Positions 8,652-40,357 of a stretch of 64,000 nt of DNA are shown one piece after another. The DNA lies in assembly GCA_016191145.1 (NCBI GenBank), contig JACPPD010000003.1, positions 1 to 64,000 on the forward strand, written 5' to 3'. Numbering within the stretch: position 1 is the stretch's first letter; each line of letters begins with the position of its first letter. A program made the position numbers and the translations under genes. The stretch is from Ignavibacteria bacterium (GTDB lineage: Bacteria; Bacteroidota; Ignavibacteria; Kapaibacteriales; Kapaibacteriaceae). The notes beneath the pieces were generated by a model. It searched no databases. It worked only from the letters and a program-made list of their open reading frames with translations, and was not told the origin of the DNA.

Positions 8652-8723
8652 CGTGCCATGTGCCAGGTGCCACGTGTCCTTCGGAGTGCCACGTGCCAGG
8701 TGCCAAGTAGCATGTGATATGTG
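8652..8723. repeat. Degenerate heptamer array NGTGCCA
   Basis: Six exact NGTGCCA heptamers in two runs of three, plus decayed copies (CGTGTCC, AGTAGCA, TGTGATA), follow one another with 7-bp periodicity, broken once by TTCGG near 8680. The array lies between the divergent tRNA-fMet and pheT promoters. No function can be assigned. Confidence 0.6.
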
Positions 8724-8805: not shown

Positions 8806-11505
8806 ATGAAAATTGTTCATGGGTGGGTGTCGGAGTTCGTCGATTTGGACCCGACAATATGGAGGCCGGAACGGGTGGCTGATGTGCTCACAGACTTGGG
8901 TCTGGAGGTGGAGCATATCGAACATCGTTCTGCTGCCCTAAACCGGTTCGTTGTTGGTTTGGTTCTCGAATGTGAGCGCCATCCTAATGCCGATAAGCTC
9001 TCTGTGTGCCTGGTTGATGTTGGTGAATCCCTGCCACGTACGATTGTCTGCGGAGCCGCGAATGTGGCCGCCGGTCAGTTTGTTCCCGTTGCCCTCGATG
9101 GCGCAGTTGTCCCGAATGGAGGCTTTGCCATAGGGAAGAGAATGGTAAGGGGCGTGCAATCGAATGGGATGATTTGTAGCAGAGAGGAATTGGGTAGAGA
9201 TGATGAGATGGGTACAGCAGACCAAAAGGAAGATGCCGGGATTTGGGTTCTTGGGTCTTCTGGGGATTCTGAACTGACACCGGGTAGAGCTCTGGCAGAA
9301 GTTATCGGCCAGACGGAAATTGTATATGATGTGGCCGTGACGCCTAACCGCGCTGATTGTCTGTCCCACATCGGGATTGCACGGGAATTACAGGCGTACC
9401 AAATTGTACATGGTAAAGAAATTGAGCAAAACGGAAAAGCAGTTACGGGGACGGGAAAAGAGAACGAAGAAAAGGGCTTGGCAGGCAAGGAGCAGCAGGT
9501 AGAAAACCCGACAGGGCTGATACACAGCATCGATGAACATCTGGCTCCGTTCTATGCTTTGCAGAAAATAACGAATGTTACTATCGGCCCCTCGCCTAAG
9601 TGGCTTCAGGATCGGCTTACGGCATGCGGGCTGCGTCCGCGTAATGTAATCGTCGATATTACGAATTACGTTAACATGGAGCTCGGACAGCCTCTGCATG
9701 CCTTTGATTTTGCGAAGGTTCGGGGTTCACAGTTCAATGTTCAGGGTTCCGAGGGTTCACAGTTCAGGGTTCAGGGTTCCAGGGGTTCACAGTTCAATGT
9801 TCAGGGTTCCATGGGTTCCAGGGGTTCACAGTTCAATGTTCAGGGTTCGAGGGGTTCACAGTTCAATGTTCAGGGTTCCAAGGGTTCACAGTTCAATGTT
9901 CAGGGTTCCAGGGATGACGATGAACACGGAACCATGAACTTTGAACGATTTGTGACTCTCGATGGCAAGGAACGCACGCTGCCACTACATACTCTGATGA
10001 TCTGCGATATGGAAGGGAGCATTGCCATAGCAGGCGTAATGGGCGGTGAGAATTCGGAGATCGATGTCAGCACCACCGACATCGTACTCGAAAGCGCCTA
10101 TTTCGATCCGGCGAGCATCCGGCGGACGGCAAAGGTTCTGGGTCTCTCTTCCGATGCGTCGTACAGGTTTGAACGAGGTGTCGACCCAGGTAATGTTCTG
10201 AATGCACTCGACAGGGCAACAAATCTTATCCTGAGTCTCATCCCTGGGTCGAGCGCCGCTGAGCGTGACGTTTCAGGACCAGGCAGTTTACTTGAGCCTC
10301 GCACGATTAAGGTACGGTTCGGAAGAATCCGAAGTATTCTTGGCACTCAGGTGTTAAACGACGAGATGATAAACATCTTTACTGCCCTTGGATGTGTGGT
10401 TTCTGACGTCACCACAGATTCATGTGTGGTAGAGCCCCCTACCTGGAGGGCCGACCTGAAAGAAGAGATCGACTTTTCGGAAGAGGTGATGCGCTTCTAT
10501 GGCATCAACAACATCAACGATGCGGCGTCGGCAGTCATCAGTCTTCAGATGCCGGTGAGCAAACCATCCGATGCCACAGGTGAACGGTTCCGTGTATTTG
10601 GAAGCAGTGTGGCAACGCACCGTAACCTGCGCATGCTGCTGGTTGCGCGTGGTTATTCCGATTGTTTAACAACGGTGCTTACGAGTCCGGAGAACGCTGA
10701 GCTAACGGGCACGGGCATCGTGAAGGTAAAAAATCCGTTGGGAGTGGAATTTAGCGCACTGAGAACGTCGCTGGTGCCATCGCTGCTAACAGTAGCATCG
10801 TTAAACATACGGCACGACGCCGGCACCATTCGGCTATGCGAAATCGGAAACGTGTTTACATGGAATACCAACGTTATCCAACGCGAACATCTTGCAGTGT
10901 TGATAACTGGTGAATATGAACAGCACTGGAGCGCACCCGAACGTGAGTTGGATTTGTTTGATTTGTTGGGCGACGTTGGGATACTTGGACCATTGGCAAC
11001 ACGGCCGGCAAAATCTCAGGGCATCTGGTCTGCGAACACTGTAGAAGTGCTTGCAAATGCCGAAGTTATTGGCATGGCAGGGTTGGTGGATCCGGAAGTA
11101 GCGGCGCTATTTGGAATAGACGCCGCCGTATTTGCCGCAGAGATTTCTCTCAAGGAACTCGATGCAGTATTTGCGGCAACGCAAGCTCAACGAGTTTATA
11201 ATAAAATTGGGCAATTTCCGAGTGTGAGGAGGGATCTTGCACTCATTGTTGACGAAGAAATTCCCGCCGGGCGAATTGTTTCGATTATTCGGGCAGCAGC
11301 GCCGGCAACATGCAGGGATGTGCGTGTTTTTGATGTGTATCGCGATGTTGAGTCGATAGGAAGGGGCCGGAAGAGCGTGGCAGTGGGGCTAACGTTCCGA
11401 AGTGACGTGAAAACGCTTATCGACGAAGAGATCGAGGATTCTTTGAATGTTATCATCCGAGCTATAGAGCAGGAGCTCGGTGCACTTATTCGGGGAAGCA
11501 GGTAG
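8806..11505 (+). CDS. pheT: Phenylalanyl-tRNA synthetase beta subunit
   Basis: PheT forms the alpha2-beta2 enzyme that charges tRNA-Phe and contributes tRNA binding and B3/4 editing. Visible are the EMAP/OB tRNA-binding domain (ECERHPNADKLSVCLVDVG near 51-69), the B3/4 domain with GQPLHAFDFAKV just before residue 306, AGVMGGENSEI shortly after the insertion, the B5 domain (about 500-575) and the C-terminal anticodon-binding domain (about 800-899). At 899 residues it is about 100 longer than usual, owing to an in-frame 30-bp repeat insertion at about 306-368 and a Lys/Glu-rich low-complexity stretch near 205-235. ATG 8806 starts at the conserved MKI(V)..W N-terminus; the upstream codons look untranslated. 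pheS is not adjacent, unlike the common pheST order. Confidence 0.95.
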   Translation: MKIVHGWVSEFVDLDPTIWRPERVADVLTDLGLEVEHIEHRSAALNRFVVGLVLECERHPNADKLSVCLVDVGESLPRTIVCGAANVAAGQFVPVALDGAVVPNGGFAIGKRMVRGVQSNGMICSREELGRDDEMGTADQKEDAGIWVLGSSGDSELTPGRALAEVIGQTEIVYDVAVTPNRADCLSHIGIARELQAYQIVHGKEIEQNGKAVTGTGKENEEKGLAGKEQQVENPTGLIHSIDEHLAPFYALQKITNVTIGPSPKWLQDRLTACGLRPRNVIVDITNYVNMELGQPLHAFDFAKVRGSQFNVQGSEGSQFRVQGSRGSQFNVQGSMGSRGSQFNVQGSRGSQFNVQGSKGSQFNVQGSRDDDEHGTMNFERFVTLDGKERTLPLHTLMICDMEGSIAIAGVMGGENSEIDVSTTDIVLESAYFDPASIRRTAKVLGLSSDASYRFERGVDPGNVLNALDRATNLILSLIPGSSAAERDVSGPGSLLEPRTIKVRFGRIRSILGTQVLNDEMINIFTALGCVVSDVTTDSCVVEPPTWRADLKEEIDFSEEVMRFYGINNINDAASAVISLQMPVSKPSDATGERFRVFGSSVATHRNLRMLLVARGYSDCLTTVLTSPENAELTGTGIVKVKNPLGVEFSALRTSLVPSLLTVASLNIRHDAGTIRLCEIGNVFTWNTNVIQREHLAVLITGEYEQHWSAPERELDLFDLLGDVGILGPLATRPAKSQGIWSANTVEVLANAEVIGMAGLVDPEVAALFGIDAAVFAAEISLKELDAVFAATQAQRVYNKIGQFPSVRRDLALIVDEEIPAGRIVSIIRAAAPATCRDVRVFDVYRDVESIGRGRKSVAVGLTFRSDVKTLIDEEIEDSLNVIIRAIEQELGALIRGSR
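9721..9909 (+). repeat. pheT: Six-copy 30-bp tandem repeat inside pheT
   Basis: Copies begin at 9721, 9751, 9781, 9820, 9850 and 9880, with one 9-bp partial unit (ATGGGTTCC) at 9811-9819. Each encodes a decapeptide of the type GSQFNVQGS(x). Copy 2 differs by a local change (AGGGTT for AATGTT). All copies are multiples of three, so the pheT frame is kept. Near identity of the copies implies recent expansion. Confidence 0.95.
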
Positions 11506-38223: not shown

Positions 38224-39567
38224 TCAGCTATTGTTAACAGGTGATTCGACTTTGAATGTTACCTGCCCCTTATCATCACAATCAACGATGACGCTATCGC
38301 CTGATGAGATTTCGGCGGCAAGGATTTTTTGAGCAAGCGGATCCGAAACATATCGCTGAACCACTCTTTTCAGCGGGCGAGCGCCGAACTGTACATCGTA
38401 ACCTCGTTTACCAAGCCACTCAATGCAATCGTCGGTTATGCGCATGATGATCCCCAGATCTTTCAGCCGCTGTCTAACGGCATCAAGCTGTATGCCTGCA
38501 ATGCGCTGTACTTCACTCGCCAGCAATGGCTTAAACAAAATTACTTCATCTATGCGGTTTAGAAATTCCGGACGCAATCGCTTTCTAAGAAGCTCGAGCA
38601 TTTTGATTCTCAATTCGCTTATGACGTCGTCGCGGTTGTCGTCTGTGATTTCGAGCAGACGTTCCTGAAGTATTTCCGCACCGAGATTCGACGTCATGAT
38701 TACAATGCTGTTTTTGAAGTCGACAACGCGCCCCTGCCCGTCGGTAAGCCTTCCATCATCGAGTACCTGCAGCAGCAGGTTAAACACATCGGAGTGAGCT
38801 TTTTCAATCTCGTCGAAGAGGACTACGCAATACGGTTTTCTTCTCACGGCTTCGGTTAACTGTCCACCCTCTTCATAACCAACATATCCCGGAGGCGCAC
38901 CGATTAGCCTCGAGACTGCAAACTTCTCCATGTACTCGCTCATGTCGATGCGAATCAGTGCGCCTTCATCGTCGAACAAAAACTCTGCGAGGGAGCGTGC
39001 CATTTCTGTTTTCCCAACACCGGTGGAGCCGAGAAAGATGAAAGAACCAATGGGACGTTTTGCATCCTGCAATCCAGCGCGCGATCGTCTGATGGCGTTT
39101 GACACAGCGGTGACAGCTTCATCCTGACCGATGATGCGATCGTGCAGCCGATCTTCCATTTTCAGAAGCTTTGTGCGTTCGGATTCGAGCATTCGCTGAA
39201 CTGGAATTCCCGTCCATTTTGCAACAATCTCCGCAATGTCGGCGCTGTCGATCTCTTCTTTCAGCAAGGCCGTACCCTGCTGCAGAGCCACAAGCTGTTT
39301 GTTTGCTTCTTGCAGCTTCCGTTCTGCATCCCGGAGTGTGCCATAGCGCAGTTCTGCCACGCGTCCATAGTCGCCGTTTCGCTCTGCCTCGGCTGCCTCC
39401 TGCTTGACTTCTTCGATTTGACTCTTCAGTGTTCGTATTGTCTGAATATGCAGTTTTTCGGTCTCCCATTTCGACCGAAGGTCTTCGCGCTCTGCTTGCA
39501 ACGATGCCAGCTCACGCTCAATTTCTTCGAGGCGCTTACGCGTGGTTCGAATCGTATCGTTAGTCAT
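38224..39567 (-). CDS. clpB: N-terminally truncated ClpB-like protein (M-domain part + NBD2 only)
   Basis: ClpB disaggregases are normally about 860 residues with N-domain, NBD1, M-domain and NBD2. This 447-residue reading begins inside the M-domain coiled coil ('GDYGRVAELRYG' near 65-76) and continues with a complete NBD2: Walker A GSTGVGKTE, pore-loop GYVGYEEGGQL, Walker B VVLFDEIEKAH, sensor 1 IVIMTSN, Arg-finger region RPEFLNRIDE and sensor 2 GARPLKR. No NBD1 coding is found upstream in any frame; instead a 12-bp repeat cluster and then plsY on the other strand follow. It may be a truncated copy, a working single-ring protein, or one half of a split gene. It is 12 bp upstream of the VWA-OmpA-SPOR gene. 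Confidence 0.85.
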   Translation of the reverse strand: MTNDTIRTTRKRLEEIERELASLQAEREDLRSKWETEKLHIQTIRTLKSQIEEVKQEAAEAERNGDYGRVAELRYGTLRDAERKLQEANKQLVALQQGTALLKEEIDSADIAEIVAKWTGIPVQRMLESERTKLLKMEDRLHDRIIGQDEAVTAVSNAIRRSRAGLQDAKRPIGSFIFLGSTGVGKTEMARSLAEFLFDDEGALIRIDMSEYMEKFAVSRLIGAPPGYVGYEEGGQLTEAVRRKPYCVVLFDEIEKAHSDVFNLLLQVLDDGRLTDGQGRVVDFKNSIVIMTSNLGAEILQERLLEITDDNRDDVISELRIKMLELLRKRLRPEFLNRIDEVILFKPLLASEVQRIAGIQLDAVRQRLKDLGIIMRITDDCIEWLGKRGYDVQFGARPLKRVVQRYVSDPLAQKILAAEISSGDSVIVDCDDKGQVTFKVESPVNNS

Positions 39568-39582
39568 ATCGGTGCAATGAAC

Positions 39583-39618
39583 ATTCTCCCGGCGTTTCTC
39601 CCGGCGTTTCTCCCGGCA
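39583..39618. repeat. Three tandem TTTCTCCCGGCG units upstream of the truncated clpB
   Basis: Units end at 39594, 39606 and 39618 (the last ends in A). The 24 bp at 39595-39618 are identical to 15192-15215 in the rny terminator, so this 12-mer is a dispersed element. It lies exactly where the missing clpB 5' half would begin. Confidence 0.8.
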
Positions 39619-39670: not shown

Positions 39671-40357
39671 ATGGACCCGCTATTACGCCTTATCCTCATC
39701 GTTGTACAAAGCTACCTTATTGGATCGATTCCGACGGCGTTATTAATCAGCAAAAAGTTTTTTGGGAAAGACATCCGTAACCTGGGAAGCGGTAATGTTG
39801 GAAGCACAAACGTATTCAGAACCCTCGGTTGGCAGTGGGGGATTGTCGTCCAGGTCGTCGATATTATCAAGGGCTTCGTGGCAGTAGGTCTGGTGGCATA
39901 TTTCTTTGATACACAGATGCCGTTTGTTAATCGCACACCGTTCGAAGATGCAACGGTTGTAAAACTCATCGCGGGTTTGTGCGCCGTAGTTGGACACATC
40001 TGGTCTGTATTTGCAGGGTTCAGAGGTGGCAAGGGAATTAACACATCGGTTGGAATACTGATTGCACTTGCCCCGGTTGAATTTGGCGTTGCCGTTGGAA
40101 TATTTATGCTCCTGCTGTTTGCCAGCGGATATGTTTCACTGGGATCGATCATTGCAGCGGCATCGGTGCCGGGGACGATGGCAATCCGACATAACATCCT
40201 TGGTGTTCAGATTGAAGGTTATCAGGTGATGGTACACGCATTTATAGTTTTGGCACTCATCGTTACCTACGCCCATCGTTCAAACATTGCGCGATTGTTG
40301 CGCGGCACGGAAAATCGATTTGCCAAGCTTCAGTTGTTCAGGCGTGTGTCACGCTGA
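39671..40357 (+). CDS. plsY: Acyl-phosphate:glycerol-3-phosphate acyltransferase PlsY
   Basis: PlsY transfers an acyl chain from acyl-phosphate to glycerol-3-phosphate, the first step of phospholipid synthesis, in the inner membrane. The 228-residue protein has about five to six membrane helices and the three family motifs: 'SYLIGSIPTALLI', 'NLGSGNVGSTNVFRTLGWQWG', and 'FAGFRGGKGINTSVGILI'. The stop overlaps the gpsA start (TGATG type), so substrate-producing and -using enzymes are coupled. The C-terminal tail is a little longer than usual. Confidence 0.95.
   Translation: MDPLLRLILIVVQSYLIGSIPTALLISKKFFGKDIRNLGSGNVGSTNVFRTLGWQWGIVVQVVDIIKGFVAVGLVAYFFDTQMPFVNRTPFEDATVVKLIAGLCAVVGHIWSVFAGFRGGKGINTSVGILIALAPVEFGVAVGIFMLLLFASGYVSLGSIIAAASVPGTMAIRHNILGVQIEGYQVMVHAFIVLALIVTYAHRSNIARLLRGTENRFAKLQLFRRVSR

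What the first reader, a model, noticed from the sequence alone, without database searches (positions are those of the whole stretch)
9721..9909. 30-bp tandem repeat expanding inside an essential tRNA synthetase gene
Six nearly identical 30-bp copies add about 63 residues (GSQFNVQGS units) to the B3/4 editing domain of PheT, at a surface hairpin between GQPLHAFDF and the TLDG strand. The unit length keeps the frame. The repeat resembles intergenic short repeats and seems to have invaded coding DNA. Copy-number change could tune editing or only be tolerated.
Basis: seen in the sequence. Interest (0 to 1): 0.6.

Follow-up and report, generated by a model that had tools for sequence, protein, structure and literature searches.

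The report
Repeat array inside tRNA-synthetase gene
A short repeat related to ones that normally sit between genes in this bacterium has multiplied, in frame, inside the essential gene pheT, adding about 54 residues to a loop beside the proofreading pocket; it is real and unusual, but most likely tolerated rather than useful.

Summary
pheT (8806-11505, +) carries six tandem copies of a 30-bp unit at 9723-9911; one copy is 39 bp. The frame stays open, and the editing-pocket residues are kept apart from one conservative change (Thr to Ser). The 30-mer is four GTTCNNN heptads spaced 7+7+7+9. The same genome has 12 long GTTCNNN arrays (401 heptads), all outside recognised genes and stepping by 7; pheT is the only coding case. 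None of 59 other genomes of the order has this insertion. The closest, G001, lacks the tandem (842 versus 899 aa), but its pheT has five of seven GTTC heptads in phase at the same site, so a short heptad array probably predates the split. The pheT heptads GTTCACA and GTTCAAT never occur in the intergenic arrays. This favours growth in situ from a local seed over recent transfer. Most likely mechanism: slippage or unequal recombination amplified a frame-compatible unit in a tolerant surface hairpin. No evidence supports tuning of editing. Closest precedents are Rickettsia palindromic elements inside genes and heptamer repeats in Xanthomonas and Nostoc. In passing: at the tRNA-Cys locus, G001 carries a GTGCCAN array where this genome carries GTTCNNN.

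The parts
8806..11505 (+). pheT, phenylalanine--tRNA ligase beta subunit, 899 aa from ATG 8806
   Evidence: TIGR00472 663 bits; Pfam tRNA_bind, B3_4, B5, tRNA_synthFbeta, FDX-ACB
9688..9708 (+). QPLHAFD motif (aa 295-301), holds the editing-site His (E. coli His265 equivalent), just upstream of the insertion
   Evidence: sequence and alignment to 3pco
9718..9911 (+). array of 26 GTTCNNN heptads with steps of 7 (19x) and 9 (6x)
9723..9752 (+). 30-bp unit 1
9753..9782 (+). 30-bp unit 2 (GTTCAGG in place of GTTCAAT)
9783..9821 (+). unit 3, 39 bp (9 bp longer)
9822..9851 (+). 30-bp unit 4
9852..9881 (+). 30-bp unit 5
9882..9911 (+). 30-bp unit 6
9922..9946 (-). four heptads of the same kind on the opposite strand (GAACNNN x4), the only such run of four in the window

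Best explanation
It is an intragenic, in-frame expansion of a lineage-specific heptamer repeat (GTTCNNN). A short heptad array was present in the B3/4 hairpin of pheT in the common ancestor of this genome and its closest relative (inferred from G001). In the present lineage a 30-bp higher-order unit of four heptads, whose length is a multiple of three, was multiplied six times by replication slippage or unequal recombination (inferred from unit homogeneity). The sense strand of GTTCNNN arrays has no stop codon in any frame, whereas the antisense strand has TGA in every frame, and a 30-bp step keeps the frame, so growth could be tolerated in a surface hairpin away from the editing residues. The extra 54 residues are most likely neutral or mildly costly.
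For: Genome-wide family: all 343 runs of five GTTC heptads in the genome are accounted for by 12 arrays plus one match in pheT. All 12 lie outside recognised genes, most of them directly beside gene ends. 0 of 389 intergenic steps are 9 bp, 6 of 25 in pheT are (the six are probably copies of one event, so the Fisher p value overstates). Sense strand open, antisense stopped. Insertion absent from the other 59 genomes; G001 is 162 bp shorter, a multiple of 3, with a degenerate in-phase heptad remnant. Heptads GTTCACA and GTTCAAT are private to pheT (11 of 26 versus 0 of 401), while G001 keeps an in-phase GCTCAAT GTTCGGG at the site. Editing-pocket residues His265, Gly318, Glu334 and Ala356 (E. 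coli numbering) are conserved, Thr354 is Ser (alignment; the roles of these residues are from general knowledge).
Against: No outgroup lies between G001 and genomes with about 50% PheT identity, so expansion here versus contraction in G001 is not polarised except by unit homogeneity. G001's 21-bp remnant is no more similar to the pheT unit (17/21) than many intergenic 21-mers are (up to 19/21), so transfer from an intergenic array into a pre-existing seed is not excluded. No read data for copy number. G001 is a fragmented assembly (about 300 contigs, 80% complete) in which long arrays may be lost. The surface location and tolerance rest on homology; no usable structure model was obtained.
Confidence: 0.72

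Rival explanations
1. Transfer: a piece of an intergenic GTTC array was copied into pheT (gene conversion, template switching or insertion), then adjusted to frame.
For: Same heptad family, 75-81% identity to intergenic arrays; GTTCAGG and GTTCCAG units are shared.
Against: Pre-existing heptads at the site in G001; private heptads GTTCACA/GTTCAAT.
Confidence: 0.15
2. Adaptive: the repeat changes the B3/4 domain and copy number tunes Tyr-tRNA(Phe) editing or subunit contacts.
For: Lies within the editing domain next to the QPLH motif; units encode an alternating polar/nonpolar pattern QFNVQ like the native strand (IVVR in relatives).
Against: Units are homogeneous and lineage-specific; editing residues intact; heptads of this family encode such patterns in any frame; no variation data.
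Confidence: 0.07
3. Assembly artefact: the true allele has another copy number or no array.
For: Tandem repeats are error-prone in assemblies; reads not available here.
Against: Units carry distinct junction codons and one unit is 9 bp longer; a contig of 501 kb runs through with the frame intact; the sister has a remnant.
Confidence: 0.06

Closest known systems
Rickettsia palindromic elements (RPE) and similar coding repeats (PMC2229807, citing Ogata 2000)
   Same: A repeat family dispersed between genes that also lies in frame inside conserved protein genes and is tolerated (guanylate kinase with an RPE is active, per that review).
   Different: RPEs are about 105-146 bp palindromic single insertions at many genes; here a tandem heptad array in one gene, probably grown in place.
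Heptamer repeats GGGAATC / GGGGA(C/T)T of Xanthomonas and Nostoc (PMC4692102)
   Same: Heptanucleotide tandem arrays, mostly intergenic and close to gene ends, variable in length and sequence between close relatives, a minority intragenic.
   Different: Different unit; no G-quadruplex motif in the pheT array; intergenic arrays here have 22-50 heptads; the coding array has a 30-bp frame-keeping period.
TAACTGA direct repeats of Beggiatoaceae, Cyanobacteria and some Bacteroidetes (PMC4679880)
   Same: Lineage-patchy heptamer arrays, mostly intergenic.
   Different: TAACTGA carries stops in the forward sense, so it ends coding sequence there; GTTCNNN is open in the sense direction.
PARCELs, intragenic palindromic tandem coding repeats (PMC2996958)
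   Same: Variable-number coding tandem repeats.
   Different: 25-residue units in ORFs of unassigned function, thought to be spread horizontally; unrelated sequence.

Membership tests
PheT (bacterial phenylalanine--tRNA ligase beta) | full domain set tRNA_bind, B3/4, B5, CLM, FDX-ACB in one frame | tested here: met
PheT (bacterial phenylalanine--tRNA ligase beta) | editing-pocket residues conserved | tested here: met
   His265, Gly318, Glu334, Ala356 equivalents identical; Thr354 is Ser (alignment)
Genome-wide GTTCNNN heptamer array family of this genome | tandem GTTC at 7-bp steps | tested here: met
   26 GTTC, 19 of 25 steps are 7 bp
Genome-wide GTTCNNN heptamer array family of this genome | uninterrupted 7-bp period, intergenic position | tested here: not met
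   6 steps of 9 bp, inside a CDS; so a coding derivative, not a typical member
RPE-like palindromic coding element | long palindrome with terminal inverted repeats, same element at several genes | tested here: not met
   direct repeats; only a 4-heptad inverted stretch at 9922-9946; a single genic site
G-quadruplex heptamer repeats (Xanthomonas/Nostoc) | four consecutive G3+ tracts with short loops | tested here: not met
   0 motifs in the pheT array
Phase-variable / copy-number-variable locus | copy number differs among strains | not testable with these tools
   one genome per species is held; the sister species differs, but that is not strain variation

The most novel reading that the evidence does not exclude
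The lineage has a general heptamer-array process: arrays sit at conserved gene-edge sites while the unit sequence is replaced between sister species (GTTCNNN here, GTGCCAN in G001 at the same tRNA-Cys site), and pheT shows such an array turned into coding sequence by a shift to a frame-compatible 30-bp period.
Probability: 0.25. Interest if true: 0.5.

Novelty: new member of a known kind. Interest (0 to 1): 0.3.

Why it matters
It is a clean natural example of how a simple repeat, normally kept out of genes, can add residues to an essential enzyme without breaking it, with a sister genome that shows a likely earlier state. It also points to heptamer arrays whose unit turns over between close relatives at the same locus.

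Tried and rejected
AlphaFold2 with the only admissible two-row alignment gave mean pLDDT 29, so no structural claim is made; the short strands it draws in the repeat are not used. The G-quadruplex reading was tested and rejected for the pheT array. A mobile insertion with inverted ends was considered because three intergenic loci (C3, C7, C8) have opposed arrays around a conserved core of about 330 bp, but pheT lacks that core. A 21-mer similarity test for local origin was inconclusive. Literature searches found no report of this repeat or of such a PheT insertion, in an open-access library only.

Full report
Observation. The window holds pheT at 8806-11505 (+), 899 aa, with all expected domains. 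TRF reports a 30-bp tandem, 6.1 copies, at 9723-9913. Six units start at 9723, 9753, 9783, 9822, 9852 and 9882; the third is 39 bp. Over their first 28 bp the units differ at 0-3 positions. The frame runs through as repeats of (R/E/K)GSQFNVQGS. Shuffled versions of the CDS never gave five contiguous GTTC heptads (0 of 1000).

What the unit is. Each 30-mer is four heptads, GTTCACA GTTCAAT GTTCAGG GTTCCNNGG, spaced 7, 7, 7, 9. The genome has long arrays of GTTCNNN on both strands. The search for five contiguous heptads gave 224 forward and 119 reverse matches; these numbers are reproduced by adding up the 12 arrays read from loci L028-L034 (C2 x2, C3 x2, C5, C7 x3, C8 x2, C10, C19) plus one match in pheT. 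The 12 arrays hold 401 heptads with 385 steps of 7 bp, three of 14 and one of 8; none of 9. They lie outside recognised genes, mostly within about 40 bp of a gene end. pheT is the only array within a recognised gene.

Why it can sit in a gene. The sense strand of these heptads is free of stop codons in all three frames, and the antisense strand has TGA in every frame for the GTTCA-type heptads and for the pheT array itself. A period of 28 would shift the frame; the period of 30 does not, nor does the 39-bp unit. The six 9-bp steps are probably copies of a single event, so the small Fisher p value should not be read as independent evidence for selection.

Comparison with relatives. Sixty genomes, including this one, were searched with the protein. 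In none of the other 59 is there a comparable insertion: the DNA between the two matched halves is at most about 50 bp. G003 is split by a contig end just before the site; its hairpin is read and is ordinary. The closest relative, G001 (same genus; contig of the same length and sequence as L035, JAGVJW010000053.1, titled 'MAG: bacterium isolate SW_29'), has about 86% DNA identity in pheT and 89% protein identity, and is 162 bp shorter at this site. Its hairpin reads GTTCGCG GTTCGCG CATAAGG GTTCATC GTTCGAA GCTCAAT GTTCGGG: five of seven positions in a single heptad phase carry GTTC, whereas nowhere in the rest of the window and in none of the other family pheT stretches are three reached. In the whole G001 assembly no run of three GTTC heptads exists, with the caution that it is fragmented and 80% complete. 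I infer that a short heptad array existed at this site before the two lineages split.

Growth in place or invasion. The two heptads that characterise the pheT unit, GTTCACA and GTTCAAT, make up 11 of 26 heptads there and 0 of 401 in the intergenic arrays. G001 retains GCTCAAT GTTCGGG in phase at the site. This favours local amplification. A similarity test of whole 21-mers did not discriminate, so copying from an intergenic array is kept as a rival.

Effect on the protein. By alignment to solved structures the insertion falls in the hairpin after QPMHAFD of E. coli PheT, about residues 277-285. The residues that form the editing pocket (from general knowledge) are conserved, with Thr354 replaced by Ser. 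Structure prediction failed for lack of an admissible deep alignment. No evidence was found that copy number changes or that editing is tuned; tolerance is the economical reading. RPE insertions in Rickettsia enzymes are a precedent: a guanylate kinase carrying one is active (PMC2229807).

A wider pattern. At the junction before tRNA-Cys where this genome has 35 GTTC heptads, G001 has an array of a different heptamer, GTGCCAN, beginning within a few bases of the same stop codon. Runs of three GTGCCAN heptads are found only in this genome and G001 among 40 genomes, and other family members have other GTTC-type units (GTTCGCT in G016 and G017). Similar gene-edge placement and variation between close relatives are described for Xanthomonas heptamers (PMC4692102). 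This is a lead, not a result.

Noticed in passing
L031:2354-3236, L030:2421-3285, L032:2527-3280: Pairs of GTTC arrays in opposite orientation flank a conserved core of about 330 bp (three near-identical copies; the end of the core also follows the array at L030:5030-5221). Looks like a dispersed element with array-like ends.
   Followed up: partly
L033:2636-3622: Opposed GTTC arrays flank a small gene of the 23S rRNA-intervening sequence protein family (PF05635) instead of the 330-bp core.
   Followed up: no
L029:2116-2494 and L123 (G001:C233): Upstream of tRNA-Cys the site is occupied by GTTCNNN heptads in this genome but by a GTGCCAN array with palindromes in the sister genome.
   Followed up: partly
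window 8653-8705: Short GTGCCAN heptamer array just upstream of pheT, shared with G001.
   Followed up: partly
window 39584-39617: Perfect 12-bp tandem repeat TTCTCCCGGCGT, 2.8 copies, between a ClpB-like ORF (38224-39567, -) and a PlsY-like ORF (39671-40357, +); names by eye, not tested.
   Followed up: no
window 9922-9946: Four GTTC-type heptads on the minus strand directly after the pheT array, the only run of four GAACNNN in the window.
   Followed up: partly
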